35,193 nt of DNA from a virus, in IMG/VR virus record IMGVR_UViG_3300044858_005282, positions 1-35,193 of that record. One strand, 5' to 3'. Positions within the stretch are counted from its first letter, which is position 1. Each line of letters begins with the position of its first letter. The translations under genes were made by a program, and so were the position numbers. A model generated the notes under the pieces. It had not been told where the DNA came from, did not search any database, and saw nothing but the letters and a program-made list of their open reading frames with translations. Positions 1 to 12,800 of the stretch are shown here, piece by piece.

Positions 1-4
1 CAAT

Positions 5-39
5 AAAAAACCCGGTTTTTCAGATGCGGGAAAACCGGG
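5..39 (-). terminator. Rho-independent terminator of the tmRNA transcript
   Basis: On the minus strand a 9-bp perfect stem (CCCGGTTTT at 39-31 with its complement at 19-11) is followed directly by a run of six T. It lies 14 bases after the stop codon of the tmRNA tag. A terminator here means the tmRNA gene ends just after its tag, so pseudoknots and the T arm cannot follow downstream as they do in a one-piece tmRNA. Confidence 0.85.
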
Positions 40-174
40 AAACCCCACTGCTTTAAGCAGCCATCCGCATTGGTGCGGCTTTTATATTTGCAACTGTTTA
101 TTTACGACACTTGTTACCCGTGTCGGGTATCTCCTTCTTCAATACTTTACGACAGTCGAAGCCAGTTCAGCCCC
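40..174 (-). ncRNA. ssrA: Split tmRNA, coding piece (5' acceptor strand, PK1, tag)
   Basis: tmRNA rescues stalled ribosomes by acting first as alanyl-tRNA and then as mRNA for a degradation tag. The piece begins GGGGCTG at 174, the invariant-type tmRNA 5' acceptor strand, followed by a TGG..TTCGAC segment typical of the tmRNA D-analogue region. A clean H-type pseudoknot PK1 follows: ACCC (128-125) pairs with GGGT (119-116), and GACAC (124-120) pairs with GTGTC (110-106). The tag frame (91-53) starts GCA and ends GCTGCTTAA. As in E. coli tmRNA, the stop codon sits in the loop of a small hairpin (CTGCT/AGCAG, 60-48). GTATT (145-141) can pair with AATAC (309-305) of the acceptor piece to form helix P2. 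The 3' end is set by the terminator and is approximate. SmpB, EF-Tu and AlaRS would come from the host; none is seen here. Confidence 0.85.
53..91 (-). other. tmRNA tag reading frame, peptide ANIKAAPMRMAA
   Basis: The resume codon GCA at 91-89 is preceded by a CAGTT stretch, in the same position as the AGTC before the E. coli resume codon. Twelve codons give A-N-I-K-A-A-P-M-R-M-A-A and a TAA stop. Bacterial tags usually start AN and end in two small hydrophobic residues, most often LAA, VAA or MAA, which is what ClpXP-type proteases recognise. The start AN and end MAA fit; the middle KAAPMR does not match a tag I can recall. Confidence 0.8.
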
Positions 175-271
175 TTAATGACCTGAAGCCTAGGACTTCA
201 GGTCGTGCCCCGCTGCTACGAGGACTTGTCTCGCCGTCTCCAGAGGTTGCAGGGACTCTGGGTTAGGCTAA
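175..271 (-). other. Intervening segment between tmRNA acceptor and coding pieces
   Basis: In permuted tmRNA genes a transcribed spacer joins the 3' acceptor end to the 5' acceptor strand and is removed by tRNA-type processing. Here it is 97 nt. It can form at least three hairpins: GACCTGAAG/CTTCAGGTC (204-196 with 188-180, 9 bp), CGAG/CTCG around 231-216, and CAGAG/CTCTG (260-256 with 245-241). It holds no ORF and no tRNA that I can fold. Confidence 0.6.
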
Positions 272-343
272 TGGAGCCGAGGGAAATCGAATCCCTGTGT
301 TGCCGTATTTCTATCCAAGATCAACAATACCAATATTATTTAG
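272..343 (-). ncRNA. ssrA: Split tmRNA, acceptor piece (P2 3' strand, T arm, 3' acceptor)
   Basis: The piece ends with T stem AGGGA (296-292), T loop TTCGATT (291-285), T stem TCCCT (284-280), acceptor strand CGGCTCC (279-273) and discriminator A272. CGGCTCC pairs with GGGGCTG (174-168) over all 7 positions, with two G-U pairs including the third position, where tmRNAs carry the G-U alanine identity pair. The upstream stretch GGATAG..AATACGG resembles the 3' strand of tmRNA helix P2. No CCA is encoded. Because this half lies upstream of the coding half on the same strand, the gene is circularly permuted, as in alphaproteobacteria, cyanobacteria and some betaproteobacteria. The 5' end is taken as the base after tRNA-Tyr. 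Confidence 0.82.
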
Positions 344-425
344 TGCGAGCAGGAGGATTCGAACCTTCGTAGGCGATGCCATCTGATTTACAGTCAGACC
401 TCTTTGACCACTTGAGTATACTCGC
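344..425 (-). tRNA. tRNA-Tyr (anticodon GTA)
   Basis: Acceptor GCGAGTA pairs with TGCTCGC (one G-U) and the discriminator is A344. The anticodon stem TCTGA/TCAGA holds loop CTGTAAA with anticodon GTA at 391-389. A long variable arm (GGC-ATC-GCC) marks a bacterial class II tRNA-Tyr. The T loop is TTCGAAT and one A-C mismatch is present in the T stem. No CCA is encoded. It sits between the tmRNA-like pseudoknots and the tmRNA acceptor piece in the same transcript, so its maturation would cut the transcript at both ends. Confidence 0.93.
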
Positions 426-450
426 TAAAAACGGGCATTGAATCCTTTTT

Positions 451-558
451 CCAAGGCCGATCAAGCCTTGGGAAGTATAGTGCTAGCCCTTCGCGTTCTT
501 CTGAGGTATTCGCGCCCCACCTCTGATTGCTGCGGGGTATCAGTTATCCCTAAGCAGC
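451..558 (-). ncRNA. Tandem pseudoknot RNA at the 5' end of the tmRNA transcript
   Basis: Pseudoknot A: stem GCTGC (558-554) with GCAGC (533-529), extended inside by GGG/CCC; its loop CTGAT (543-539) pairs with downstream ATCAG (527-523). Pseudoknot B: AGGT (522-519) with ACCT (507-504), and CGCG (514-511) with CGCG (495-492). A strong hairpin follows, CCAAGGC/GCCTTGG (471-465 with 457-451). Tandem H-type pseudoknots are the hallmark of the tmRNA PK2-PK4 domain. In a permuted gene they should lie just here, 5' of the acceptor piece. The odd point is that tRNA-Tyr separates them from it. A separate regulatory RNA is the alternative. Bases 426-450 show no clear fold. Confidence 0.6.
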
Positions 559-576
559 TTTATAGATTACAGCCAT

Positions 577-604
577 ACTATATATCACAATACCATGGAG
601 TCAA
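577..604 (-). promoter_or_regulatory. Sigma70-type promoter of the tmRNA/tRNA-Tyr transcript
   Basis: TTGACT at 604-599, a 16-base spacer, and TATAGT at 582-577 predict a start near 570, twelve bases before the first pseudoknot. The -35 box is back to back with that of the plus-strand promoter at 609; only four bases (TTAA) separate them, forming the palindrome TCAATTAATTGA (601-612). Confidence 0.75.
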
Positions 605-608
605 TTAA

Positions 609-636
609 TTGACTTGCTCTTTTTACAGGATATATT
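609..636 (+). promoter_or_regulatory. Sigma70-type promoter of the 643 gene
   Basis: TTGACT (609-614), 16-base spacer, TATATT (631-636). Counting the last -10 base as -7 puts +1 at 643, exactly the A of the ATG, so the mRNA would be leaderless. No good Shine-Dalgarno sequence precedes this ATG. Confidence 0.7.
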
Positions 637-642
637 GTTGTC

Positions 643-996
643 ATGGCTAAGAAGAAAAGAATAAAAACCGTACCATTCATCTTAAATGACTTTGATCTGG
701 TATCATATCTTTTAGATGAAGATGATGAAAAGTTTAATAAGTCTTTAGAAGAGATGCCTTTTACTTTGCTTCTGCAAAATTATGCAGACTATTGTGAGGC
801 CATTGGGTCTGTTGTCAAGGAAAGAAAATCAAATAACAAAGATCCACGAATCAGCAAACTTTATGATCGTAAGTATTTGTTGGCCGATAGACTTAAATTG
901 AAGATGTTTGATACTCAAGAAGAATCAAGTAGAGCAAATTATCATTACGATAAAATTGCTGATGAGCACTGGGAATTAAAAAATAAATCAAAATGA
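643..996 (+). CDS. Hypothetical protein, 117 aa
   Basis: I do not recognise a family. The protein starts with a basic stretch (MAKKKRIK), then an acidic patch around residues 25-30 and a mainly helical body rich in K, D and E, ending in a lysine-rich tail. It is likely soluble and cytoplasmic. It opens a plus-strand group behind a sigma70-type promoter whose predicted start is the ATG itself, so expression early in infection is likely. Its stop overlaps the next start by four bases (ATGA), which suggests translational coupling with the 993 gene. Confidence 0.8.
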   Translation: MAKKKRIKTVPFILNDFDLVSYLLDEDDEKFNKSLEEMPFTLLLQNYADYCEAIGSVVKERKSNNKDPRISKLYDRKYLLADRLKLKMFDTQEESSRANYHYDKIADEHWELKNKSK

Positions 997-1199
997 CAAA
1001 CAAGGATCTTGAAGCTAAAATTTATGAGTTTGGTCAAATTTTGTACCGCCTTGGTCGCATGGAGACCGACGACAAAGCCAGCACAAAAGAATATAATAAA
1101 CTTTGTAAAGAGCGAGAGGATTTGACAAAAGAATTTGACGAACACTTCAAATCCCCAAACATGAATCGAAAACTGGCAAATGCTATGGGTTTAGTCTAG
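993..1199 (+). CDS. Hypothetical small helical protein, 68 aa
   Basis: The family is not recognised. Residues 4-52 are charged and heptad-like, suggesting one or two helices or a short coiled coil. It shares a four-base overlap with the 643 gene and is probably co-expressed with it. Its 3' end overlaps the convergent minus-strand gene ending at 1191 by nine bases. Confidence 0.75.
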   Translation: MTNKDLEAKIYEFGQILYRLGRMETDDKASTKEYNKLCKEREDLTKEFDEHFKSPNMNRKLANAMGLV

Positions 1200-1388
1200 A
1201 GAATCACCAAAAGTGGCTTTTATGACAGCATCAATATTTTGAATTTTAGATCTGCTCAAATAATCCATAAGCTGCTTGCGGATTTCTTCTTTCCAAGAAG
1301 CCAGACCATCCTTTGAAGCATTTTGTGATGCACCAAAAGTTGTTTCAACATTGTACACATTTCCTTCATTTATCTTATTTGACTTCAT
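1191..1388 (-). CDS. Hypothetical protein, 65 aa
   Basis: The family is not recognised. The N-terminal third is polar; the rest (WKEEIRKQLMDYLSRSK and after) looks helical. It converges on and overlaps the 993 gene by nine bases. Its ATG is preceded by AGCAGG at a reasonable ribosome-binding distance. Its start region overlaps the -35 box of the opposite-strand tRNA-Gly promoter. It could be spurious, but the codon pattern and translation start look genuine. Confidence 0.6.
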   Translation of the reverse strand: MKSNKINEGNVYNVETTFGASQNASKDGLASWKEEIRKQLMDYLSRSKIQNIDAVIKATFGDSLD

Positions 1389-1406
1389 TGTTTAGCCTGC
1401 TATAAT
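1379..1406 (+). promoter_or_regulatory. Sigma70-type promoter of tRNA-Gly
   Basis: TTGACT (1379-1384), 16-base spacer, TATAAT (1401-1406). The predicted start near 1413 is three bases before the mature tRNA 5' end. Confidence 0.8.
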
Positions 1407-1415
1407 AGTTATATC

Positions 1416-1487
1416 GCGGCTGTAGTATAATGGCCATTACTCTAGCCTTCCAAGCTTGATATGAGAGTTCGATTCTCTCCAGCCGCA
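1416..1487 (+). tRNA. tRNA-Gly (anticodon TCC)
   Basis: Acceptor GCGGCTG pairs perfectly with CAGCCGC (1480-1486), discriminator A1487. Anticodon loop CTTCCAA gives TCC at 1449-1451 (reads GGA). T arm is GAGAG-TTCGATT-CTCTC. One T-T mismatch is present in the anticodon stem. No CCA is encoded. Its 3' end is only three bases from the next start codon, so it and the 1491 gene must share a transcript. Confidence 0.93.
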
Positions 1488-1490
1488 TTT

Positions 1491-1793
1491 ATGCCAAAAC
1501 CACGTAAAACTTCTACTCAACCAAAGCGCAAGCCAAAAAAGCCCGAACCTGTAGTGGAAAAGGTTTATCCGGAGTATATTGAAAATTTTAAAAAGGAATT
1601 AAAGGAAAAAACTCCTTTTACTTTAAAAGTTGATCAATATTCCAAGGATGCCGCATACCATATTGGTGTTTTGGCAAAGCAAGGTAGAACACATAGGTGT
1701 ATTTGGATGGTGGGATTTGCTACTGGCCCAGAATATACTAATCAATTTTGGACATCTCAGGCATACAAAGAATGGACTCAAAATCATACCTAA
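1491..1793 (+). CDS. Hypothetical basic protein, 100 aa
   Basis: The family is not recognised. The first 25 residues are very basic and proline-rich (MPKPRKTSTQPKRKPKK), and a compact mixed domain follows (residues 35-100) with several aromatic residues. A longer frame opens at 1461, but that start lies inside tRNA-Gly, so the ATG at 1491 is chosen. There is no room for a ribosome-binding site between the tRNA (ends 1487) and the ATG. tRNA 3' processing would release a leaderless mRNA. Its TAA stop (1791-1793) lies inside the late-promoter-like motif of the next gene. Confidence 0.8.
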   Translation: MPKPRKTSTQPKRKPKKPEPVVEKVYPEYIENFKKELKEKTPFTLKVDQYSKDAAYHIGVLAKQGRTHRCIWMVGFATGPEYTNQFWTSQAYKEWTQNHT

Positions 1794-1796
1794 ATA
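1790..1796 (+). promoter_or_regulatory. Late-promoter-like CTAAATA before the 1803 gene
   Basis: CTAAATA lies six bases before the ATG at 1803 and contains the upstream stop codon. It sits within an inverted repeat, ATACCTAA-ATA-TTAGGTAT (1785-1803), that covers the motif and reaches the start codon. Confidence 0.55.
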
Positions 1797-1802
1797 TTAG
1801 GT

Positions 1803-2270
1803 ATGATAATTGATTATAATTATAAAATTGATGCAAAAGGAGTAACCTTCGATGGTGCTACCTTTTATGTCTATACACCCGAAAAAACAAATAAGGGTTT
1901 CATTTATAGTATTAATACTTTTGGTAATTACCAAGATAGTGGTGGGTCTGATGGTGTAGCGTATATATCGGAACTTGTATTTACTTCACCGGAAGGAAAT
2001 GATGTTTCTATAAAAAATATATCCCCTACCACAATATTTTTAACTATAAATGATTTTTTTGCTCAATTTTCTTTTCCTCAAACTTTTAATTCTAGTAGTT
2101 TTTATAGACAATTTCAATCTACTAGAATGGCGATAAATGCGCAACATGATGTTTGTACTGTACCAATACAACTTAAAAAAGCTATAATTTCTACTGATGA
2201 TACTACAACCTCAACCCCTACTATACCAGTAACTTGGTTATTTCCAGTTCAAATTTTTCCACTATATTAA
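1803..2270 (+). CDS. Hypothetical late protein, 155 aa, beta-rich
   Basis: The family is not recognised. The composition (many Thr, Ser, Asn, Phe, Tyr; few charges) and alternating hydrophobic pattern suggest a beta-sandwich virion protein rather than an enzyme. A Thr/Ser-rich linker (around residues 130-140) precedes a hydrophobic C-terminus ending PLY. The late-type motif upstream and the two paralogous small beta-rich proteins just downstream support a structural role, but this is inference. Confidence 0.75.
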   Translation: MIIDYNYKIDAKGVTFDGATFYVYTPEKTNKGFIYSINTFGNYQDSGGSDGVAYISELVFTSPEGNDVSIKNISPTTIFLTINDFFAQFSFPQTFNSSSFYRQFQSTRMAINAQHDVCTVPIQLKKAIISTDDTTTSTPTIPVTWLFPVQIFPLY

Positions 2271-2271
2271 A

Positions 2272-2571
2272 ATGAGATCATATAAAAAAATAAAAAAATA
2301 TAATGGAGGTTCTTTGTCAAAAAATAACAAAGGGCTATTGTTGATTCATATTAGTAACATTAGTTCATCAACCGCATTATCTTTACCGTGCAACATACAA
2401 AATCCTGATGGATCTACATCCAATATTATTCCTGTTTTGTATCCGGTTATAGATTCAAGCACCAATCTTCCTTTTTCTACACCAGCGGGAAATGGTTGGG
2501 CAATAATTCCATTCAATGTTCTTTCAATATCCGGTCTTACTAGCCAAGCAAACATTTATGAACTTTTTTAA
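2272..2571 (+). CDS. Small beta-rich protein, paralogue of the 2586 gene, 99 aa
   Basis: The family is not recognised. The N-terminus MRSYKKIKK is basic, the middle is Ser/Thr/Pro-rich, and the end is ANIYELF. The next protein has the same plan: MRTFRKMRK at the start, an (N/Q)PDGS-like stretch in the middle (NPDGSTS here, APDGSLV there) and NVYELF at the end. This points to a tandem duplication. The start ATG follows the previous stop by one base. A small decoration or adaptor virion protein is plausible. Confidence 0.78.
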   Translation: MRSYKKIKKYNGGSLSKNNKGLLLIHISNISSSTALSLPCNIQNPDGSTSNIIPVLYPVIDSSTNLPFSTPAGNGWAIIPFNVLSISGLTSQANIYELF

Positions 2572-2573
2572 GG

Positions 2574-2580
2574 ATAAATA
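2574..2580 (+). promoter_or_regulatory. Late-promoter-like ATAAATA before the 2586 gene
   Basis: GATAAATA lies three bases after the previous stop and five bases before the ATG at 2586. Confidence 0.5.
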
Positions 2581-2585
2581 ATAGT

Positions 2586-2843
2586 ATGAGAACTTTTAGA
2601 AAAATGAGAAAACTGGGATCATCTGGAACGGGTGCTACTGGTGGAAAAAATAATGAAGCTGTTTTGGTACAAAATCCAACAGGGAGTACACAAACTGTAA
2701 CATTGCAGTGTTTGGCACCAGATGGAAGTTTAGTTTCTGTTGGTCCATTAAATCTTCCAACAAATTCGATTACACTTTATCCATTTTTTACTTATGGGTT
2801 TACTGGCAGCACTGCTGCTCTAAATGTGTACGAACTATTTTAA
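2586..2843 (+). CDS. Small beta-rich protein, paralogue of the 2272 gene, 85 aa
   Basis: The family is not recognised. MRTFRKMRK, a Gly/Thr-rich linker (GSSGTGATGG, residues 11-20), then a domain of about 60 residues with beta pattern ending NVYELF. It is similar end to end to the preceding protein, shorter mainly in the middle. It has its own late-type motif upstream, so it may be made at a different level from its neighbour. Confidence 0.78.
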   Translation: MRTFRKMRKLGSSGTGATGGKNNEAVLVQNPTGSTQTVTLQCLAPDGSLVSVGPLNLPTNSITLYPFFTYGFTGSTAALNVYELF

Positions 2844-2846
2844 AGT

Positions 2847-3053
2847 ATGCAAAGTGAAATTCGTTGTTTGATTACAAACGAAATTTTAAAACCAAAGCAG
2901 TGGTATTGGTATTCATGGGAAATGGATGCCGCAGTATCAGAAAAAGGTATGGTAGAAATAGAAATTCGTCGTCATGATCCTGACGACGAATTTGCTAAGT
3001 TGTTGTGGGAAGAATGGCGTTGGAGTTCCCAAATAGGTCACATAGACCTTTAA
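2847..3053 (+). CDS. Hypothetical acidic Trp-rich protein, 68 aa
   Basis: The family is not recognised. It has six or more tryptophans in 68 residues, clustered WYWYSWE near residue 20 and WEEWRW near residue 56, with an acidic stretch (DPDDE) between. A pair CLITNEIL near the start resembles a half zinc-ribbon but no second Cys pair is present. Its stop overlaps the convergent minus-strand gene by four bases. Confidence 0.7.
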   Translation: MQSEIRCLITNEILKPKQWYWYSWEMDAAVSEKGMVEIEIRRHDPDDEFAKLLWEEWRWSSQIGHIDL

Positions 3054-3643
3054 CGCTTTCCGCGCATCATTCTGTCAACAATACCTTCAATGCCTTCTTG
3101 TTCATCTTCTTGACGAGCGTAGTATTCGGCTTCCTGATCTTCTCTGTGTGCTGTTTCCTTGTCCTCTTCTGTTTCGTAACCAGCTTCTGCTCTGGCTTGT
3201 CTTGCAAGCTTTGTTGGTGGACGCATCAAGTTTGGATCAATTGGATTGTCTTCGTCTTCAATGTTATTATCTTTGGCATCTGCTGCAACGTCTTGAGCAT
3301 CAACCTTACCATCACCAGTCATGTCTACTTGTGTTGGCATAGAATCCTTGGCCTTCTTAGCAGCCAAAATTTCTGCATAAATTTGAGCCGAGGTCTTCTT
3401 GACATCTCCAGCAAACTTTGGATCGATGTGGGGACCCTTTGGTGGTCTACCCGGACCATCGGTGCTAGTCATGAGCTCTTGGTGGGTTTTTTCCAAATCA
3501 GCTGGGTTTACGCCAACTGGCTTGCCCTTTCCCAAACCAGATTGCAATGATTCTTCAAGCATTGCTCTACCCTTAAAGTGAGCCTCTACAGATGCGGCCT
3601 TGAGGCTGTGAATCCACTGATAATAACCTTTATTATTCTTCAT
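3050..3643 (-). CDS. Late protein with a dockerin/EF-hand-like calcium loop, 197 aa
   Basis: Overall function unknown. Residues 107-118 read D-x-T-x-D-G-x-V-D-x-x-D, the calcium-loop pattern of dockerin and EF-hand repeats; only one such loop is seen, whereas dockerins have two. The C-terminal half is strongly charged and probably helical (EDKETAHREDQEAEYYARQEDEQ..). The frame is open to an ATG at 3664, but CTAAATA at 3655-3649 and the opposite promoter -35 lie over those first codons, so the ATG at 3643 is chosen. A scaffold, core or tail-associated protein is plausible. Confidence 0.78.
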   Translation of the reverse strand: MKNNKGYYQWIHSLKAASVEAHFKGRAMLEESLQSGLGKGKPVGVNPADLEKTHQELMTSTDGPGRPPKGPHIDPKFAGDVKKTSAQIYAEILAAKKAKDSMPTQVDMTGDGKVDAQDVAADAKDNNIEDEDNPIDPNLMRPPTKLARQARAEAGYETEEDKETAHREDQEAEYYARQEDEQEGIEGIVDRMMRGKR

Positions 3644-3648
3644 AAAAT

Positions 3649-3655
3649 TATTTAG
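3649..3655 (-). promoter_or_regulatory. Late-promoter-like CTAAATA before the 3643 gene
   Basis: The motif is five bases upstream of the ATG at 3643-3641; with T4 late spacing (+1 six bases after the motif) the transcript would begin at the start codon. Confidence 0.5.
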
Positions 3656-3657
3656 AC

Positions 3658-3685
3658 TTGACATTGCTTCACTTTAAGGTATAAT
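3658..3685 (+). promoter_or_regulatory. Perfect-consensus sigma70 promoter
   Basis: TTGACA (3658-3663), 16-base spacer, TATAAT (3680-3685). Both hexamers match the E. coli consensus exactly. Predicted start about 3692, two bases before the ATG at 3694. It should be one of the strongest early promoters in the window. Confidence 0.85.
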
Positions 3686-3693
3686 TAAATAAT

Positions 3694-3840
3694 ATGGAAG
3701 GTATACACGGTGCAGGTAAAGGTGACGCATATCGCCAAGTGAATTATGCAACTTATTGTAAAAATTGGGATAAAATTTTTGGAAAGAAAGAAGCCCCCAA
3801 AAAGAAAAAAGGGCTTGACAATAACAAAAAAAAGAAGTAA
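3694..3840 (+). CDS. Small lysine-rich protein, 48 aa
   Basis: The family is not recognised. The first 30 residues are mixed, with a Gly-rich start (MEGIHGAGKGDAYRQ) and aromatic residues (YCKNWDKIF); the last 18 are nearly all Lys with a few Pro, Asn and Gly. It is driven by a consensus sigma70 promoter with an almost absent leader, so it should be made early and strongly. Small basic early phage proteins often bind host nucleic acid or RNA polymerase; this is only analogy. No Shine-Dalgarno is visible. Confidence 0.65.
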   Translation: MEGIHGAGKGDAYRQVNYATYCKNWDKIFGKKEAPKKKKGLDNNKKKK

Positions 3841-3843
3841 TAT
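3815..3843 (+). promoter_or_regulatory. Candidate sigma70 promoter inside the 3694 gene
   Basis: TTGACA (3815-3820), 17-base spacer, TAATAT (3838-3843). The predicted start falls at or within one base of the ATG at 3849. Confidence 0.5.
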
Positions 3844-3848
3844 ATAAC

Positions 3849-4022
3849 ATGCCTAATTCGAAACAACGTATTACAGCTCGTCGTCACAAGAAGCGAAAGG
3901 ACCGTCTTGCACGGAACCGCGCTAATAGCCTCATGGAGGCAAAAGTTGGTACACTTCGTGCGCTTGACGCGATTGGCCAACTCCCTAAGTCTGTCAAGCA
4001 AAAGAGATTGCCTAATGGCTAA
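3849..4022 (+). CDS. Small highly basic protein, 57 aa
   Basis: The family is not recognised. The sequence runs M-P-N-S-K-Q-R-I-T-A-R-R-H-K-K-R-K-D-R-L-A-R-N-R and continues as a helix-like segment to residue 57. Arg and Lys make up about a third of the protein and acidic residues are few, so nucleic-acid binding is likely; the start resembles basic ribosomal proteins, but no assignment is possible. Its last codons overlap the start of the 4015 gene by eight bases, indicating coupling, which also supports both reading frames. Confidence 0.7.
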   Translation: MPNSKQRITARRHKKRKDRLARNRANSLMEAKVGTLRALDAIGQLPKSVKQKRLPNG

Positions 4023-4314
4023 AACTGTCACTAATATGTCCTTATCCGATGTTAGGAGCAAGTATGATAACATCGATTGCTTTTTTACCTACTATGATGG
4101 TGAAAAGTCTACGTTTGATTTCTATGGAACTAACGCTTCTGGGAATGAAGTTCGAATTTCCTTGGGTGGTTGTCCAGCGTGGATTCGTCATCTGTCATTT
4201 GGCCCAAACGACTCCTTAAATATCAGTGATGCTATTGAGCGTCATGTTCGTTACCTTTCCGTAACAGATAATCACGGTAAGGTAGTTTATGAACAATTCT
4301 TTGACACTAACTAA
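4015..4314 (+). CDS. Hypothetical protein, 99 aa
   Basis: The family is not recognised. It is a mixed alpha/beta protein with several aromatic residues (CFFTYYDGEKSTFDFYG). An upstream ATG at 3907 is in frame, but it would lie inside the basic 57-aa gene, so the ATG at 4015 (MAKTVTNMSL) is chosen. It is the third gene in the cluster begun by the consensus promoter at 3658. Confidence 0.75.
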   Translation: MAKTVTNMSLSDVRSKYDNIDCFFTYYDGEKSTFDFYGTNASGNEVRISLGGCPAWIRHLSFGPNDSLNISDAIERHVRYLSVTDNHGKVVYEQFFDTN

Positions 4315-4319
4315 AATAC

Positions 4320-4736
4320 ATGAATAACTCAGACTATAACGATTTTAAAAATTGGCAAAACGATGGGGATGATGAAAACAATCCCCATAATCCACATGGA
4401 TTTTTTTACTATGGGCCTGTCAATGACAAGTTCAAGAAGATGTGGAATCAAATCAATAACAATGAAGACTACATGGATTACATGAAGGATTATCTCAATA
4501 TTGACGATATCATGAAGGAGGTCATGAATCCCATGAACAAAATGCCAAAACCAAATAAACGAAATGAAAAGCCCAAGACAACTACCGTAAACTTTACACA
4601 AGATGAGTATATGAAGCTCATCGAAATTCGTGGTTATCTTGCTATTACCGAGCAGCATGCTCACGTAAAGGCATTGGATAAGGTCTTAAGCCAAATTACC
4701 ATGCTTCCCCCAAATGATCCAAGGAGAGCAAAATGA
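4320..4736 (+). CDS. Hypothetical acidic/Asn-rich protein, 138 aa
   Basis: The family is not recognised. Residues 1-30 are Asn/Asp/His-rich and probably disordered, residues 35-75 are Met- and Asp-rich (DYMDYMKDYLNIDDIMKEVM), and residues 85-138 look like a compact helical domain (FTQDEYMKLIEIRGYLAITEQ..). It is cotranscribed with the 4015 gene five bases upstream, and overlaps the next gene by four bases. Confidence 0.78.
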   Translation: MNNSDYNDFKNWQNDGDDENNPHNPHGFFYYGPVNDKFKKMWNQINNNEDYMDYMKDYLNIDDIMKEVMNPMNKMPKPNKRNEKPKTTTVNFTQDEYMKLIEIRGYLAITEQHAHVKALDKVLSQITMLPPNDPRRAK

Positions 4737-4954
4737 GCAAGTATACTCCCGGTGAAGGTTATGATAAGGGATTTCAGTGTCGTATGAATGGAGGCCAGAA
4801 GCCTATTCAGGCAATGTCAGCAACAGACCCATACTGGCAAGAGTATTCAACTGGCTGGAATGATGCTGATACAAAAATTATTAATGAGGCAAGAGATAGA
4901 AACTCTTGCACCAAGCCAAAGTGCTGTAAAAAGAAAAACTTTATTCAGGACTGA
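4733..4954 (+). CDS. Hypothetical protein with Cys-rich basic tail, 73 aa
   Basis: The family is not recognised. The body (residues 1-55) is Gly-, Trp- and Tyr-containing, and the tail CTKPKCCKKK has three Cys in seven residues, which could bind a metal. The start ATG overlaps the previous stop (ATGA) and a GGAG ribosome-binding site precedes it. Last gene of the plus-strand cluster; a long inverted repeat lies 22 bases after its stop. Confidence 0.78.
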   Translation: MSKYTPGEGYDKGFQCRMNGGQKPIQAMSATDPYWQEYSTGWNDADTKIINEARDRNSCTKPKCCKKKNFIQD

Positions 4955-4957
4955 TAA

Positions 4958-6685
4958 TTAAGTAGATATAGTTTTAGAGGAAGGTAGCTCCAAAGGATAC
5001 CTTCCTCTTTCCATATGTGGTGCTAATATCTTAGCAGCATATTCTCTCAATGCATCTTTATTGATTCCAGTTTTTCCTACATAAGTATCTGGAATTTGAT
5101 CGAATAAATGATCTATGGCATCTATTGATACAGACATTGCCTCTTTAGGCGCATCGCCACCCGGTATGGATCTTATTTCATCATAACCAATGTCACTGCC
5201 AACAGAAGGTGAAGATTTTGTTCTTACTCTCAAATCTAAGCTTTTTACACCTTGGCGACCGTGTGGTTCATTTTCGGTTGGTTTTCCAGCTGTGGGATTT
5301 ATTCTGAATAATCTACTTTTAACAATTTGTCTTAATTGTTCGACCGTGTGCGCTACAAATCCTTTTGCCGAAAGTGGTTTTTTTGTGTCTGTAAATGTTT
5401 TGTGTCCTATGATTTGTGGAGTTTGGATCTTAGACTCCATTTCACTTCTCATTTGACTCTCAATCTCAGGGCTTTGTATTAAGCCTCTTACTGCTTTTTT
5501 AAAAGTAGATCCCTCTGCTGGAAGAGCTACAATTTCTCCTCCGAGCTCAAGACCTTTTCTTTTTCTAGATAGCTCTGCGACAGGTTTTCTATCTGTTCCG
5601 TAATCTACTTTTACTAGCCTGTCTTCAAAACTTTTTGATTTGGCTGTGGGATCATATTTAAAACCATCTGGGGCAGCTTCTGGTCCTTCTGAATCATTCT
5701 TAGATGCTCTCTTTTGAGCATTTCTTAAACCCAAATCAATCCACTGTTCTCCATGCCCCTCTTCACCAGAAGTTGAAGCAGCATGGAATCCGTTGACCCA
5801 ATCAACCATTCTACCGACATATTCTGTTTGGTTTGGGTTTAATTCAGAAAGATCATAATTTTCTTGCGTTCCAATGTTAGAAATTAGACGTTCAAGTACA
5901 TGTCCTGCATGATATCCCTGTTTTGTTGTTTTTACATTTTCAAATAATATACTTAATTTACTTAAATCAACATCTTCCATAAAATCTTTGCCCGGATAAT
6001 TGATCCAGTACAGATCATGGTCTCCACTTATTGGATTTATACTTTTGATACCGATCTTTGCTTTTTTATTTCTTCTTTGGAATCTTTGAAGATAATTTTT
6101 GGTTTCGCTATCGGGAACATCCTTCCACTGCTTTGCGCTCTTGAAAGAAATATATTCCTCTGGGCATACTTCAAACACTTCACAATTATCGAAATACTTT
6201 GGCTTCTTCTTTCTCTTTAAACCCATTCCGAGTATGGGATCATATCCTGCTACACCACCTTGGGAAACTTCTGGAGATGCTGGAACTGATAAACCACCGG
6301 GGCCCGGACCAGCTCCTCCACCTGTGGTCATATCTTCTAAAAGCTGAATGTAGCTAACTTCTTCATTTACATTTGCAGTGATGAACCCCTCCATGAAAAA
6401 ATTGTATTCTTCAGATGGAAGATTAAACTGCTCACCGAACATATTCAAGGTTGCCATATAGTTGGACAACTTTGCTTTTGTTGTTCCATATGGAAGTTCT
6501 TCAAATATCTTCTTTAATTTTATTACCAAATATTCAAATGAATCTATGCTGCTTTCTGGTTTTATTATATTTCCATTGGCATCTATCGTGCCAGCACTAT
6601 ATGCTTCAAGTGAGGTGTAGGGAGCACTGATGCCCTGTGCTAACTTGTAGAAGTAGAATGATGGTACGTAGGAACTAGCTTTCAT
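4958..6685 (-). CDS. Large late protein, probably virion, 575 aa
   Basis: The family is not recognised. Residues 1-118 form an acidic mixed domain; residues 120-145 are a Gly/Pro linker (GGGAGPGPGG); the rest is polar and soluble with no membrane segment or enzyme motif I can see. The last 65 residues contain S-I-D-A-I-D-x-L followed by a helical segment, similar to S-I-D-A-I-N-x-L in the 184-aa protein at 14049, so the two may share a small domain. ATAAATA upstream and its place beside the giant paralogues suggest a virion component. Confidence 0.85.
   Translation of the reverse strand: MKASSYVPSFYFYKLAQGISAPYTSLEAYSAGTIDANGNIIKPESSIDSFEYLVIKLKKIFEELPYGTTKAKLSNYMATLNMFGEQFNLPSEEYNFFMEGFITANVNEEVSYIQLLEDMTTGGGAGPGPGGLSVPASPEVSQGGVAGYDPILGMGLKRKKKPKYFDNCEVFEVCPEEYISFKSAKQWKDVPDSETKNYLQRFQRRNKKAKIGIKSINPISGDHDLYWINYPGKDFMEDVDLSKLSILFENVKTTKQGYHAGHVLERLISNIGTQENYDLSELNPNQTEYVGRMVDWVNGFHAASTSGEEGHGEQWIDLGLRNAQKRASKNDSEGPEAAPDGFKYDPTAKSKSFEDRLVKVDYGTDRKPVAELSRKRKGLELGGEIVALPAEGSTFKKAVRGLIQSPEIESQMRSEMESKIQTPQIIGHKTFTDTKKPLSAKGFVAHTVEQLRQIVKSRLFRINPTAGKPTENEPHGRQGVKSLDLRVRTKSSPSVGSDIGYDEIRSIPGGDAPKEAMSVSIDAIDHLFDQIPDTYVGKTGINKDALREYAAKILAPHMERGRYPLELPSSKTIST
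4976..5008. repeat. 11-bp inverted repeat between convergent genes
   Basis: AGAGGAAGGTA (4976-4986) and its exact complement (4998-5008) form an 11-bp stem with an 11-base loop. It lies inside the last codons of the minus-strand 4958 gene and just after the plus-strand 4733 gene. It may stop the plus-strand transcript or protect 3' ends; the following T run is weak (TTTCC). Confidence 0.5.
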
Positions 6686-6692
6686 ACATTAA

Positions 6693-6699
6693 TATTTAT
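6693..6699 (-). promoter_or_regulatory. Late-promoter-like ATAAATA before the 6685 gene
   Basis: CATAAATA lies seven bases upstream of the ATG at 6685 and overlaps the end of the 6696-9863 gene. Confidence 0.5.
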
Positions 6700-9600
6700 G
6701 TAATATAGGTTGGAGTACCACCATTTGTTGCTCCGCGCAACATTGTAAGAGGATTGTATGTAATACCGTTTATTGGTAGGTTTAGTACACCAAGTCTTTG
6801 GGCTTCTGGAACTGGCGGATTGGTGACCACTGGCAATTCGTATGTATTAGTGGTCCACCAAACACCAAATTTATTATTTCCATTCTTAATAAAGTTGGTA
6901 ACTCCAGCAACATTGTATGTTGTAGGTTGTCCTGTTACCGATCCTTGGATTGTCACAGAACTTGTTGCTGGGTGAGCAAAAGTTACTCTCCACAGATAGG
7001 TTCCGTTTACCAGTTGTGCACCAGACATCAAATATTCTCTTTCATCGAAGTTTACTGGTGCAAGATACATGGTTTCAGATACAACTCCTCCAGCAATAGT
7101 ATTGCATTCGTGAACAACATCGTTCACCTTTCTAGCAAGATCCATTGCAAGTGCACCACATACTCCAAAACTTGTTACTCCGGCAGTAACTCTTGGGAAT
7201 CTTTGATTTTCCGCTGGTGCAATTGGACCACCTGTATTATAAGCGCAAGTGTAACTTATAGGATTCCAGTAAGAATACTTCCAAGTTTTATTAATATACT
7301 GGTGTCTCATGTTTTCGTAGAACATGGGACCATTTTCACCTTGCAAGAAAGTAATTCCCTGTGCTACAGTATTTGTAAAGTATGTACCAGCTGTCAATCC
7401 AGTTGGAACAAAGTAATAATTTGCCAAGTTCAAATTTGAAGATGGTGTAATGCTTTCGCCACTATATTCCTCATCGGATTTCCAATTTTGGATAGCTATC
7501 CAAGTGTTAATTGGTTTTTGAATTCCATTCCAACGAGAATTTGCAACTGGAGGAAGAACATTAGCTCTTTGTGCATTTGCTCTGTACACATTAACAAGAG
7601 CAAGATGGCGACCCCAAGAAACATCTGCTAGTAATGCAACGAAACCCATTGGATACCAGTGAGTCCAGTATTGGTTATATATTGATCCTGCTGGTAATGT
7701 GTTTCCCGGCACAGGATAACCACAGTTATCAAAATCATCTCTTGACCAGAAAGTAAAACCAGATGCACCGCCTCTACTCAAATTTCTACGAACAGTAATC
7801 CCACCCATTGTGAGCCCGACAACTATATCTTTTCCTAGTGTTGGAATATGGTTTGCGGGACCATATGTTACACCAGAATTCCAGTTTAGATTTGTTATAT
7901 TGAATACTGGATTCAAATACCAAGAAGGTAAGTGTGGAGCTCTATCATATCCACATAGTGTTGTAGCACATGCAGTAGAACCAGAGGCACCCGATACATC
8001 AAACCTGAACGCAGCACTATTTCCAAGACGCTCGGCACAATAAAGGAATTCAACTAGTTGTCCAGCTGAAGCTCCTGTATTTCCTAGATAATTTCCGGGT
8101 AACCAAGATTTTAAGAATTTTGATTCACCTTTAGCGACAATTGCATTATACATGGTGAAGTTAGCAACATGTCTTTTTGCAAATGTATTTCCAGAATTAG
8201 CTTGACCAAAAGAATTACCAGAATAATCCAAGTTTCGGTCAATAGATCTTGGAGAATTGCTTATTTCGTGGAAAGCTGCACCCACTCCACCATATGCGTG
8301 AATATCACCAAAGTTTCCTACTTCTCTTGTGTATGTCTTTGGTGAATTTAAACCACTTACATCGTGTGTATCAAAACCATAATAATATACAACTTGTGCA
8401 TCTGATGCTGCCCTTGGTATTGGATACTTTAAATAATCTGGTGTGCTTTGATTCATGTCTCTATTCATGAATCCAGTATAAGACCAATCTAAACTTGGTG
8501 GATTTTTAAAATTAGCAACGCCAACATTTGTTTTATAATATCCATAGTTTGAAACGGGATAATTATCTGCAGTTAAACCAAAAGCTTGTTTGAAATCATT
8601 TGCAGCATCTGTCCAATGGGCGGCTACCCAATCTTTCATAATTGCTGCATATTCTGAAAGCTGCCATTGGAAAGCAGAACCACTTATTACAATATTTCCT
8701 GTTATACCCGCACACTGTCCCCTAAATGTCATTCCATCAACATTTTTCCAACCAGATCCTGTAGTGTAACCCATAGAAAGCATGAAAGCTCGCATGGAAG
8801 TGATGCCTTCGGCAATCAAGCAATCTGGTGCAGCACAAATTCCAGTAAATGAAGCCCACCAAGTATTTCCTGTTGGGCTATTATTTGGATACAACCAAAC
8901 ATTTTGTGCGCCCGAGTCGTTATCTATAGACCTAAAATCAAAGAAATTATAATATTCATCATCACATTCCCAACCACCCATTGTGAATCCACAAGCACCC
9001 ATCAAAGCATATACTGTATTCAATTCTTTGCGAACAAAATTCATTTTTCTTTTCAACCACGGAGTTGGGGTTAATATTCCACCTCTTACTCCGTTAGAGA
9101 ATACTACAGTATCCGCATTTGCAATTCCTGTGGCTCCAAAACCCGCAATTCCATCTATAGCTCTCCAATGTCTACTGGGTGCCAAAATTCTTTTCTCTGG
9201 TGGAACCCAAGAAAATATTTCCATTATGTTTATTACGTCTTGGTATAATATAAATCCAGTAGAACCAAAACTCATTCCAATGTAACCTGTTGGGGTGTTC
9301 CATGGAGCTTGGTTCCAGTTTATGTCGAAAGAGCCAACAGGATCACCGACACCGGACCAGTTATTATCTGTTGCACTCATTGATGGAGGAAAATTGCCTA
9401 AAGCTAACTGTGCTTTGTCTGGTCCTTTTTTACCAGAAGGCAAAAATACCGAGTACCACATATAGGTAAGTCCGTTTTGACTTCCCCACTGTTCTGTTTG
9501 GTTCCACCAACCATAAGGTGATTGCCACATATCTACAAATGGTTCTATATTTGCTGCACTTATAGCTGATCTTCTATCAGTTCCACCATCAGTATCGCTA

Positions 9601-9863
9601 GAATCCGCCAAACCTTCAAATTCTTGATCAGAATAACCCAAGGAAGCTGCAAGAGCCACTGCTTGTGCATAATCCATGGCGTGACCAAATTGGTTCACGA
9701 ACATATTCAAATCAGGATTAAATGAATAAACTAAACCATTGTAGCTAAAGCTTGATGGTGCGCTTGAATTCTTAGATTCTTTAATAATTCTATAATCAAT
9801 TCTGTTAAGTTCATTTCCATAAGAAGCCAAGAACATGTGTAGTGGATTATAGTGGTTTAGCAT
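6696..9863 (-). CDS. Giant virion-like protein A, 1055 aa, paralogue of the 9883 gene
   Basis: Exact function unknown; most likely a tail fibre, adhesin or other large surface protein. The first 98 residues are almost identical to the paralogue (MLNHYNPLHMFLASYGNE..), suggesting a common anchoring domain. Similarity continues in patches to the end, for example GNTWW near residue 330, THWYPMG near residue 755, and the C-terminal block ETMYLAPVN..SGAQLV..NPP. The protein is rich in Trp, Tyr, Asn and Gly and poor in Lys, as in beta-structured fibres. No signal peptide or catalytic motif is seen. It lacks the module inserted in the paralogue near residue 265. A promoter-like motif and an AAAGAA ribosome-binding site lie upstream. 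Confidence 0.92.
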   Translation of the reverse strand: MLNHYNPLHMFLASYGNELNRIDYRIIKESKNSSAPSSFSYNGLVYSFNPDLNMFVNQFGHAMDYAQAVALAASLGYSDQEFEGLADSSDTDGGTDRRSAISAANIEPFVDMWQSPYGWWNQTEQWGSQNGLTYMWYSVFLPSGKKGPDKAQLALGNFPPSMSATDNNWSGVGDPVGSFDINWNQAPWNTPTGYIGMSFGSTGFILYQDVINIMEIFSWVPPEKRILAPSRHWRAIDGIAGFGATGIANADTVVFSNGVRGGILTPTPWLKRKMNFVRKELNTVYALMGACGFTMGGWECDDEYYNFFDFRSIDNDSGAQNVWLYPNNSPTGNTWWASFTGICAAPDCLIAEGITSMRAFMLSMGYTTGSGWKNVDGMTFRGQCAGITGNIVISGSAFQWQLSEYAAIMKDWVAAHWTDAANDFKQAFGLTADNYPVSNYGYYKTNVGVANFKNPPSLDWSYTGFMNRDMNQSTPDYLKYPIPRAASDAQVVYYYGFDTHDVSGLNSPKTYTREVGNFGDIHAYGGVGAAFHEISNSPRSIDRNLDYSGNSFGQANSGNTFAKRHVANFTMYNAIVAKGESKFLKSWLPGNYLGNTGASAGQLVEFLYCAERLGNSAAFRFDVSGASGSTACATTLCGYDRAPHLPSWYLNPVFNITNLNWNSGVTYGPANHIPTLGKDIVVGLTMGGITVRRNLSRGGASGFTFWSRDDFDNCGYPVPGNTLPAGSIYNQYWTHWYPMGFVALLADVSWGRHLALVNVYRANAQRANVLPPVANSRWNGIQKPINTWIAIQNWKSDEEYSGESITPSSNLNLANYYFVPTGLTAGTYFTNTVAQGITFLQGENGPMFYENMRHQYINKTWKYSYWNPISYTCAYNTGGPIAPAENQRFPRVTAGVTSFGVCGALAMDLARKVNDVVHECNTIAGGVVSETMYLAPVNFDEREYLMSGAQLVNGTYLWRVTFAHPATSSVTIQGSVTGQPTTYNVAGVTNFIKNGNNKFGVWWTTNTYELPVVTNPPVPEAQRLGVLNLPINGITYNPLTMLRGATNGGTPTYIT

Positions 9864-9879
9864 GATTTTCTTTGTATAT

Positions 9880-9886
9880 TATTTAT
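9880..9886 (-). promoter_or_regulatory. Late-promoter-like ATAAATA before the 9863 gene
   Basis: CATAAATA, 16 bases before the ATG, overlaps the TAA stop (9885-9883) of the upstream paralogue. The whole leader is conserved with that of the paralogue. Confidence 0.6.
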
Positions 9887-12800
9887 GGGAATGCTGATAC
9901 ACCATTCCAAGTTGTTGTTCCCGCAGGCAATCCCGGATTTATGGGCTGTGGGGGATTCAAAACTACTGGAATTTCATAGGTACTGGATGACCACCACACT
10001 CCTCTATGGTGGTTAGCATTATCTATAAAATTAGTAACTCCAGCTATATTATATTGAGTAATCTGATTTGTAACACTTCCTCTGACGTTTATAACTTCGG
10101 ATGCAGGGTGCAAGAATGTGATGCGCCACATGTAGCTTCCATCCACTAGCTGTGCACCAGAAATGTGATATTCTTTTTCAGAATTGTTTACTGGAGCCAA
10201 GTACATGGTTTCGTTTACCATTCCTTTGCACGTGGTATTACATTCATGCAACAATGTATTTACTCGCATACCACCTCTATAAACCAGATCACCACAAACA
10301 CCACCTAAAGTGAATCCACATACTCCAGTGGGTGCAGCAACTACTTTGTCATTTCCAAGAATTCCTCTAACTTCATCTGGATTCAAAACAGGCCATGCCA
10401 ACACTTTGGTGTTTCTATTCCATTGAGGAACAGGTTCTGTCCTTCCCGGATTTACAACACAACTGTATTCCCCACCACCCCAAGTAGTAAATGCATTTGC
10501 TTTGTGTAAGAAAGCATGTCTAAAATTTTCTGCCCAGTAATCGTTTATATCACCATAGAAGAAAGTTGCTCCTCTTAGTTTATAACCGGAGCCATCCCAA
10601 TTTTGCCAAGAAACATCGTAGGTAATTCCCTTTGGTTTGAAGTAACCGTAGTAATAAACACCATTATCTTTCATGTATGCTGTATTGTCATTTGCTAAGT
10701 TGAACGTACCCATTATGGCCATATTTGGATCCAAAATCCAATAGTGTGATGGGTTTTGTTGAGCAGCTGGATTTCCTGCATTTCTTTCGACAAATGTCTT
10801 CAGCATTTCGGTTCTTGCCATGCTTCTCATAGAACATAGATCTGCAACAAATGCAAACCAACCCATAGGATACCAGTGAGTATCATAATCTCTGTAAATA
10901 GTACCCGGTAAGAAAGTTATTCCGGGATATGGGAATCCACAGCTATCCCATAAGAACAAGGCTCCACTGTAACTTGGATTTGTTGTAAGTGCTTCTACTG
11001 TATATGCACCTTGTGTTACACCATAAACAGCTGACCACAAATTTGTTGGCAGCATATTTACTGGGCCATTTCTATCGGTACATTGTGTTATTCCAAAAAT
11101 ATCATGAAAGAACCACGGCATTGATTTTGGAGCTTGACCATTGCAAGTAGTACAAGTTGCACCCATTCCAGCTGAAACTCCAGAATAATTTCTTGCATAT
11201 GTTTCCATACACCAGTTATTTGGAATTCCAAAAGATGAATTGTTAAATGTAAATCCTAGGCCACCGTTAACGCTTACTCCTCTATAATTTCCCGGAACGT
11301 GTAGTCTCATCGGTCCAGTATTTTGTCCAGCACTTGAATATGCTGAACCAACCATAAATTCATAGTTTGATTTAATACCTAAACTGCTGCCAGCGTAGCC
11401 ATATGTATTTCCATAATAAATTCTTCCAAAATCAAATAAATTGGTTGTCGCTGAACCGAAATTGAAACTTCCATTAATTATTCTTGCTCCAATATTTGTA
11501 GGAACACCGATATAATTATTTGGGAATGGCCCATACAAATTCATTGAACCTTGATTTCCATTTTTGGAAAATTCTGGTCCAGAACTTGCTGTTGATATAT
11601 CTATTCCTGCAAATGCTTTTGTTGCCTTTGGCTCGCTTAAAGATGTGGTTGGATAAATTTGTGTTTCTACATCCGGAGAAACTAGAGTCAAATTATTTGG
11701 AAGTGGGTTATTTCCCAAAAATGTTCCATAAGTTTCTTTGTATGAATAATTATTAATAATAGCTGTAGTATTTCCAGTACCAACCATTATTTCTTTGAAT
11801 GGTTGCACCATAGCATCTTCTACGAAATAACCAACAAATTCTTGTATAACGGCATCCCATACACTGCCTTGCCAAATATTACTGGATCCGCCGGGATTTA
11901 TTGAATCTTTGCTATTATTTTGTGATATATTGAGCAAGTCTACGCAAAAAGCTTGTGAAGTATTTGTAGTAGAACCACGAAGGATTAACAAATCTCTAAA
12001 ATTTGTAACACCAGTATTCAAAAATAGGCTTCTAGGTGCGGCAGAGGCTCCAGTAAAACCTATCCACCAAGTATTTCCAGTAGAAATTCCTGAAGTTCTG
12101 AATAGATTTTTTTCAATACCAGACGCAGTAGATGTTCTATTTAATGTATACAACGATGAAGCATAGAAAGCTTCGTCATCATTCAACATTCCAGACATCG
12201 TAAAGCCTCTATTTTTGAGAGCAGTGAGAATATTTCTCATCTCTCTTTCGGCATATTGAGTTTTTCTGGCTTTATAGGGAGAAACCCACACATTTCCAAG
12301 ACCATTCACTACATTTTCGCTGACTGTTGTTGTTGTTGTTGGAATATAATTGGTCGCTATTTCATTTTCTTCAATCTGTCCACCCCAAGCAATAATCTGG
12401 GAAGCATACGTATTACCAGCACCTATATTTGGTCCTGTTACACCAACAACTCTTAACAACATTCCCATAGTTGTGGCCGGAGGCTGAACTATGAATTGGG
12501 CTTGATATCTAGTCCAAGCCGTTCCCAGTGAAATAGAACCCCAAGAACCACCAGAAGATATAATATTTTGATTTGGTAAAAATTCTACAAATAAACCTGC
12601 TGTCAATCCTCTTAACCAAATACTTGAACTATATGTTGCAGAAGGATTAGATAAATTTATATTTTGACCAAAATTATAAGAAGTTGTTCCCGGTATATTA
12701 TTGTAAACAATTCTAGTTGCTGTTAAAGATCCATCTGGTGCAGTATCACCCAACGATAGTGCTGTTGCGCCATTTGAAGTATTCCAAGGGGTTATATGTA

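What the first reader, a model, noticed from the sequence alone, without database searches (positions are those of the whole stretch)
1..343. Phage-encoded circularly permuted (two-piece) tmRNA
On the minus strand a tmRNA 3' half (T arm AGGGA-TTCGATT-TCCCT, acceptor CGGCTCC, A272) lies upstream of a tmRNA 5' half that starts GGGGCTG at 174. The acceptor strands pair over 7 of 7 positions, PK1 is intact, a tag frame ends in MAA, and a terminator follows the tag at once. Known one-piece tmRNAs have the opposite order. Permuted tmRNA is established in alphaproteobacteria, cyanobacteria and some betaproteobacteria; a phage copy is rare in my knowledge. It may let the phage replace or reprogram host ribosome rescue.
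Basis: partly seen in the sequence, partly recalled or inferred. Interest (0 to 1): 0.93.

Follow-up and report, generated by a model that had tools for sequence, protein, structure and literature searches.

The report
Phage two-piece tmRNA with structured spacer
A T4-like phage carries its own rearranged, two-piece ribosome-rescue RNA, a kind already reported from phages, but the stretch expected to be cut out from between its two pieces folds into a conserved RNA structure that our searches found only in this group of phages.

Summary
Window 331-53 (minus strand) is a circularly permuted tmRNA gene: Rfam tmRNA_permuted, 63 bits against a cut-off of 47. The acceptor strands pair 7 of 7, keep the G3-U70 alanine signal and co-vary between the two halves in relatives. 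Relatives show that the tag is best read as 8 codons, AAPMRMAA. The gene ends in a pseudoknot whose second stem can serve as the terminator.

The rarity claim fails. Two-piece tmRNAs in phages were published in 2022 (PMC9004378); Melnitz and HTVC008M carry them. Of 50 related records searched, 8 of the 10 of at least 35 kb have one.

What looks new is the 97-nt intervening sequence (271-175). It forms a conserved fold with compensatory changes. Rfam gives no match. A core pattern finds it in viral contigs only in these tmRNA genes (50 of 50 stretches); two bacterial pattern hits were chance. Two related genes lack it, so it is an accessory module. Its role is unknown; assisted processing or a released small RNA is most likely. 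Expression, processing, charging and tagging are untested.

The parts
272..331 (-). tmRNA acceptor piece (3' half): P2 strand, T arm 296-280, acceptor strand CGGCTCC 279-273, discriminator A272; CCA not encoded
   Evidence: RF04321 match; read; 7/7 pairs with 174-168
175..271 (-). intervening sequence (97 nt): conserved structured spacer RNA domain with two hairpins joined by a proposed loop-loop helix, plus a third hairpin
   Evidence: fold z-score -3.4; no Rfam match; found only in this context
240..261 (-). spacer hairpin B (stem 261-256/245-240), loop part 252-247 CUGCAA
   Evidence: 5 of 6 pairs change on both sides in relatives; one pair fails in 16 of 38
208..223 (-). spacer hairpin D (stem 223-219/212-208), loop 218-213 proposed to pair with the loop of hairpin B
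   Evidence: inner pair of the stem seen as GC, AU, GU and UA; one loop-loop pair CG to UA in two sequences
182..202 (-). spacer hairpin E, stem 202-196/188-182, self-complementary 6-base loop sequence CCUAGG; absent in 6 of 38 sequences
53..174 (-). tmRNA coding piece (5' half): GGGGCTG 174-168, D-loop region, P2, PK1, spacer, tag, stop
   Evidence: RF04321 match
90..125 (-). pseudoknot PK1: 125-120/110-105 and 117-113/94-90
   Evidence: read; variants read by eye, not counted,
53..79 (-). tag reading frame, 8 codons AAPMRMAA plus stop
   Evidence: 51 of 51 readable genes, the window included, keep an 8-codon tag in this register
5..48 (-). 3' H-type pseudoknot (48-44/30-26; 39-31/19-11) ending in T6; second stem doubles as intrinsic terminator
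343..425 (-). tRNA-Tyr (gta) directly upstream, presumably same transcript
   Evidence: ARAGORN, Rfam

Best explanation
This is most likely a working phage ssrA gene of the circularly permuted kind. One transcript, probably shared with the tRNA-Tyr just upstream, carries the acceptor half first and the coding half second. Host RNase P should cut before G174; tRNase Z or a similar enzyme should cut after A272, and CCA is then added. The two pieces stay paired through the acceptor stem and P2. Host alanyl-tRNA synthetase should charge it (G3-U70), host SmpB should deliver it (none found in 25 related records), and stalled ribosomes receive the tag AAPMRMAA and terminate. It most likely keeps ribosomes available while host DNA and mRNA are destroyed. 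The removed 97-nt spacer folds on its own and most likely helps the precursor fold and be cut cleanly, or survives as a small RNA. Shown: gene order, pairing, covariation, tag register, spacer structure, distribution. Inferred: transcription, cutting, charging, SmpB use, and every function.
For: RF04321 63 bits over cut-off. In a check that set no condition on the acceptor letters, 68 of 69 locus entries pair 7 of 7 and one (L304) 6 of 7; all 69 keep G3-U70; the acceptor types differ by paired changes (seven types with the short-spacer genes). 51 of 51 readable genes, the window included, encode 8-codon tags ending MAA, IAA or VAA, although the stretch before them is 10 or 11 nt; ARAGORN reads 8-residue tags in L285, L249, L304, L309, L310 and L312. 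Stem 2 of the 3' pseudoknot varies while pairing. Spacer: 12 of 27 pairs change on both sides; covariation score 0.186 against 0.099 in shuffles (0 of 500 reach it) and at most 0.065 when slid. 8 of the 10 records of at least 35 kb, among 50 relatives searched, carry the gene. SmpB in 0 of 25 records, in 10 of 14 control genomes.
Against: No expression, processing or function data. In the extraction full pairing, a GGG start and TCC were conditions; one search lifted these but still took the best-pairing candidate start. L304 has one acceptor mismatch. None of the three clade-specific permuted models reaches its cut-off. RF04321 also exceeds its cut-off on five standard tmRNAs checked, so a hit alone is not proof of permutation. 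ARAGORN reads a 12-residue tag in L203, L208, L209 and L244. Two related genes have only a 5-nt spacer and three more distant ones about 13 nt, so a tmRNA gene can do without the domain. The spacer is less conserved than the mature pieces (mean column identity 0.81 against 0.89 and 0.86, 32 genes). One covariation measure, the number of further pair types, does not exceed shuffles (21 against 21.8). The host is unknown, and the SmpB search covers records that may be fragments.
Confidence: 0.82

Rival explanations
1. The spacer is a sensor (riboswitch-like) that lets maturation of the two-piece tmRNA respond to a metabolite or ion.
For: Strong conservation of bases not explained by pairing (TTAGCCTAA, GGCGA, AAGTCC) and a compact fold; parts of these were in the search patterns, so their constancy is partly selected. 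Melnitz combines a two-piece tmRNA with a glutamine riboswitch, though that aptamer lies 3' of the tmRNA, not in the spacer.
Against: No match to any Rfam family; an alternative expression platform was not looked for; two close relatives do without the spacer domain.
Confidence: 0.2
2. The spacer is a self-cleaving ribozyme that cuts the precursor without host enzymes.
For: Position between two pieces that must be separated; compact fold with conserved unpaired bases.
Against: No Rfam ribozyme match. Self-cleavage would leave ends that need further trimming, and tRNA-processing enzymes suffice in known two-piece tmRNAs (PMC11915505). Absent in related genes.
Confidence: 0.08
3. The gene is an inhibitor or relic: a tmRNA-like decoy that titrates host SmpB rather than rescuing ribosomes.
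For: A molecule like the tRNA-like domain of phage DS6A inhibits tmRNA (passages of PMC4131195 and PMC11915505). No SmpB in 25 related records.
Against: Tag frame, stop hairpin and 3' pseudoknot are kept across relatives; a decoy would not need the tag.
Confidence: 0.08
4. Chance resemblance or a host fragment picked up at the contig end.
For: The match lies at the very end of the record.
Against: E 4.6e-10; 52 distinct gene sequences, the window included, in many contigs, with tRNA-Tyr on the same locus in 7 of 8 and 8 of 9 loci scanned (not all of these loci hold the tmRNA itself); the spacer pattern has no true match in bacterial genomes.
Confidence: 0.01

Closest known systems
Two-piece tmRNA of marine T4-like phages Melnitz (MZ577097) and HTVC008M (NC_020484)
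   Same: Permuted gene order, RF04321 over cut-off (113.4 and 90.6 bits), T4-like phage
   Different: Those are alphaproteobacterial type (RF01849 106.7 and 83.8 bits), encode CCA, and close their spacer with complementary ends (read). The window scores 14.2 with RF01849, encodes no CCA, and has the structured spacer. Melnitz has a glutamine riboswitch after the tmRNA.
Cyanobacterial permuted tmRNA (RF01851)
   Same: Of the three clade models the tRNA-like domain scores best here (30.7 bits over model positions 60-117), including CTCCATT with no encoded CCA
   Different: Below the cut-off of 70; the rest does not align; 89 residues of the spacer stand where the model shows 4
Standard (one-piece) phage tmRNA, as in mycobacteriophages
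   Same: Same predicted job in trans-translation
   Different: Opposite order of halves; RF00023 only 24.7 and 12.6 bits of 47 here
GOLLD and ROOL, phage RNAs near tRNA islands
   Same: Structured phage RNA of unknown function in a tRNA region (passages of PMC12286853); they form homo-oligomers (abstract start)
   Different: GOLLD members often exceed 800 nt and both are separate RNAs; the spacer is 97 nt and lies inside a tmRNA gene; no Rfam match

Membership tests
Permuted (two-piece) tmRNA, RF04321 | Covariance-model match over the curated cut-off | tested here: met
   63 bits, cut-off 47
Permuted (two-piece) tmRNA, RF04321 | 3' half upstream of 5' half, acceptor stem of 7 pairs between them | tested here: met
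   279-273 pairs with 174-168; co-varying types in relatives
Permuted (two-piece) tmRNA, RF04321 | G3-U70 alanine identity pair | tested here: met
   window and all 69 locus entries
Permuted (two-piece) tmRNA, RF04321 | PK1 and a tag frame with stop | tested here: met
Permuted (two-piece) tmRNA, RF04321 | No 3' half downstream (not one-piece) | tested here: met
   RF00023 below cut-off; in relatives with longer flank (L203, L208, L285, L252) RF00023 is not listed over cut-off
Permuted (two-piece) tmRNA, RF04321 | Transcript cut into two stable RNAs, charged, used with SmpB to tag proteins | not testable with these tools
   needs RNA and protein experiments
Alphaproteobacterial tmRNA, RF01849 | Match over cut-off 50 | tested here: not met
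   14.2 bits
Cyanobacterial tmRNA, RF01851 | Match over cut-off 70 | tested here: not met
   30.7 bits, tRNA-like domain only
Betaproteobacterial tmRNA, RF01850 | Match over cut-off 84 | tested here: not met
   not listed over cut-off; one search left out three lower-scoring matches of the same clan
Group I intron form of tmRNA | Intron within the T loop | tested here: not met
   T loop TTCGATT intact
Known riboswitch or ribozyme (for the spacer) | Rfam match | tested here: not met
   no match at E up to 10 on 172-275

The most novel reading that the evidence does not exclude
The spacer is a new class of phage structured RNA: RNase P and tRNase Z release it as a defined 97-nt RNA with its own role. 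Hairpins B and D lock by a loop-loop helix. Hairpin E ends in a self-complementary loop (CCUAGG, GCUAGC or CCCGGG in 32 of 32 sequences that have the hairpin) and could pair two molecules; GOLLD and ROOL, other phage RNAs near tRNAs, form homo-oligomers. The phage would then use one rearranged gene to make both a rescue RNA and a second regulatory or scaffold RNA.
Probability: 0.25. Interest if true: 0.78.

Novelty: new variant of a known kind. Interest (0 to 1): 0.52.

Why it matters
It adds a group of T4-like phages, without a close deposited relative in our searches, to the known carriers of two-piece tmRNA and proposes the tag they would add, which makes phage-directed protein tagging searchable in metaproteomes. 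The spacer is the new point: the discarded part of a tmRNA precursor is usually ignored, and here one keeps a defined structure across relatives. If it has a job, a processing by-product would be a functional phage RNA.

Tried and rejected
Tag frame switching: reading from GCA at 91 gave an in-frame 12-residue tag in 26 of 51 genes and a +1 frame in 25.

Glutamine riboswitch in the spacer, as the wording of PMC9004378 might suggest: rejected. In Melnitz the aptamer is at 46398-46446, after the tmRNA match (46013-46345), and the window spacer has no such match.

Spacer in bacteria: one exact-pattern scan of genome contigs gave two Clostridia places, both in other sequence with no tmRNA. A Natronococcus plasmid match (E 0.9) was taken as chance. 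A weak R1 match in L114 (20.3 bits) overlaps a tRNA and was dropped. Of the 24 new loci, five (L276, L279, L284, L295, L296) are not tmRNAs.

A claim dropped on checking: that the spacer is more conserved than the mature RNA. It is less so.

Host: photosystem genes PF00124 in 0 of 25 relatives speaks against a typical cyanophage; the host stays unknown. RF04321 over-calls: five of the loci checked (L231-L234, L236) are standard tmRNAs, three of them with a tRNA overlapping the match. The D-stem of model R1 was entered one column off; this touched only searching, and one search uses the corrected structure. Scripts extracted nothing because of faulty search expressions, and one search stopped with an error; searches replaced them.

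Full report
What was checked. The window is a 35,193-base virus record. Its genes are T4-like: DNA polymerase, UvsX, DnaB-like helicase, primase, ThyX and ribonucleotide reductase. The best-ranked deposited phage polymerase is 41.7% identical; the 25 listed hits are Synechococcus T4-like phages and one marine virus. Megablast of window 1-12000 against deposited phages finds nothing. Polymerase relatives exist in IMG/VR up to 100% identity.

The gene. cmscan matches RF04321 (permuted tmRNA) at 331-53 minus over all 213 positions, 63 bits, cut-off 47. RF00023 (standard) gives only 24.7 and 12.6 bits, alpha 14.2 and cyano 30.7, all below cut-off. RF04321 alone is not proof, because it also passes its cut-off on five standard tmRNAs checked; the gene order and pairing are the proof here.

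Relatives. RF04321 was searched in 50 of the 80 polymerase relatives, most of them fragments; 10 of 50 have a match over cut-off, and 8 of the 10 records of at least 35 kb, a limit I chose after seeing the lengths. brought in more. From the loci held I extracted 52 distinct gene sequences, the window included. There the 5' half was located by asking for 7 of 7 acceptor pairs, a GGG start and TCC in the 3' strand, so full pairing and G3-U70 are partly conditions; 15 other strings did not fit, of which only L260, cut by a contig end, is a tmRNA. One search lifted these conditions, taking the best-pairing of the candidate starts before a loose D-loop pattern: 68 of 69 locus entries pair 7 of 7, L304 pairs 6 of 7, and G3-U70 holds in all 69; L260 again lacks its 5' half. 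The 69 entries are loci, so some repeat one sequence. Seven acceptor combinations occur in the 52 genes: pairs 4, 5 and 7 change on both sides and pair 6 appears as CG, UG and UA. Swapped halves of different types pair fully in only 9 of 42 combinations. P2 also changes on both sides, for example GGTAT/ATACC against GATAC/GTATC in L285 (read, not counted).

Tag. In 51 of 51 readable genes (L287 is cut) the frame from GCC or GCT, 10 nt (26 genes) or 11 nt (25 genes) after a TTGC taken as the end of PK1, encodes 8 residues ending MAA, IAA or VAA; the window form AAPMRMAA is the commonest, 14 of 51. In E. coli 11 nt separate PK1 and the tag, and a few bases upstream set the frame (PMC2481249, passages). 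ARAGORN gives 12 residues for L203, L208, L209 and L244 and 8 for L285, L249, L304, L309, L310 and L312; only the 8-residue reading fits all.

After the tag. The stop codon sits in a small hairpin loop (CTGCT-TAA-AGCAG; CGGCT with AGCCG in L275 and L285). An H-type pseudoknot follows. Stem 1 (GTGGG/CCCGC) does not vary in the 23 of 34 distinct sequences that I aligned. Stem 2 varies and pairs: 16 distinct cases pair over 7.1 bases on average with their own partner, against 5.7 with partners of others, a modest margin, partly because many share a stem and some stems have a bulge. In the window stem 2 is also the terminator stem; several relatives have a separate terminator.

The spacer. In known two-piece tmRNAs the segment between the pieces is absent from the mature RNA (PMC11915505, first part and passages). 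Here it is 97 nt; with one flanking base on each side it folds better than all 200 shuffles, z -3.4. Among 38 distinct versions a structure with hairpins B, D and E and a loop-loop helix between B and D holds: 93.7% of cells pair, 12 of 27 pairs change on both sides, covariation score 0.186 against a shuffled mean of 0.099, none of 500 shuffles reaching it; sliding partners drops it to 0.065 or less. The number of further pair types does not exceed shuffles (21 against 21.8), and one pair of hairpin B fails in 16 of 38. The loop-loop helix rests on three invariant pairs, one pair with CG to UA in two sequences (L203 and L275), and weaker outer pairs, one of which fails in 27 of 38; it is the least secure helix, though L281 and L275, close relatives, differ by exactly that compensatory change. 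Part of hairpin D was in the search patterns, so its constancy is partly selected. Hairpin E is missing in 6 of 38; where present its loop holds a six-base self-complementary sequence in 32 of 32, in three versions. A tetraloop closed by one more pair would explain this too. Over 32 genes with a long spacer the spacer is less conserved (mean column identity 0.81) than the acceptor piece (0.89) or the coding piece up to the GCA (0.86).

Distribution of the spacer. Pattern searches of viral contigs found 40, then 63, then 50 stretches. The last pattern does not ask for the tmRNA-adjacent part, yet all 50 loci are ones seen with a tmRNA (L260 shows only the upstream half). The spacer model finds exactly one copy in each of 27 of 50 records and none in the other 23. 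Deposited phages give no blastn match. Bacterial genomes gave two chance matches to an exact pattern, so divergent bacterial versions are not excluded. Two relatives (L175, L188) have a 5-nt spacer, and L309, L310 and L312 about 13 nt. Tags, acceptor types and spacer types occur in mixed combinations, which suggests exchange of parts; in a permuted gene the whole tRNA-like domain with its spacer is one contiguous block.

How it most likely works. The acceptor piece lacks an encoded CCA, which fits cutting after A272 by tRNase Z and CCA addition; RNase P should cut before G174 (established roles of these enzymes; inferred here). SmpB was found in 0 of 25 related records, some of which may be fragments, so host SmpB is presumed. 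A phage that degrades host DNA and mRNA would gain from a steady supply of rescue RNA. PMC9004378 proposes similar roles for Melnitz.

What is known. PMC9004378 (abstract, section 8, passages) reports 53 two-piece structures among 133 unique phage tmRNAs. PMC11915505 counts 79 unique bacteriophage tmRNA sequences of all forms. I saw no description of a structured spacer of this kind in the listings, nor in what I read: section 8 and passages of PMC9004378, the first part and passages of PMC11915505, and passages of PMC4131195, PMC10085705, PMC12656738 and PMC2481249. The library lacks most subscription papers.

Verdict.

Noticed in passing
window 430-562, minus strand: A second conserved structured RNA just 5' of tRNA-Tyr: 22 distinct sequences, 89% mean column identity, 7 of 32 pairs with changes on both sides, covariation 0.188 against 0.092 shuffled, possible pseudoknots, one of which never varies. 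Rfam gives only a 14.1-bit microRNA match on the other strand, and deposited phages none. A pattern finds it in 38 viral stretches; in 8 of 9 new loci scanned a tRNA follows closely, three of them (L309, L310, L312) with a tmRNA that lacks the spacer domain. Single-sequence folding is not unusual (z -0.78).
   Followed up: partly
L309, L310, L312: Relatives with 8 to 16 tRNA genes on the locus plus a permuted tmRNA with a short spacer; tags AAPMAMAA, GAQMRLAA, ANQLAMAA.
   Followed up: partly
L231-L234, L236: Rfam RF04321 passes its cut-off on these five standard tmRNAs; in three (L231, L232, L234) the match overlaps a tRNA. A source of false permuted calls in viral contigs.
   Followed up: partly
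window 604-577, minus strand: Sigma-70-like site (TTGACT, 16 nt, TATAGT) upstream of the second RNA, tRNA-Tyr and tmRNA; 4 sites on the two strands in 1-700 against 1.0 expected.
   Followed up: no
window 6696-9863 and 9883-13626, minus strand: Two long neighbouring open frames (1055 and 1247 aa) with nearly the same N-terminus, perhaps duplicated structural proteins.
   Followed up: no
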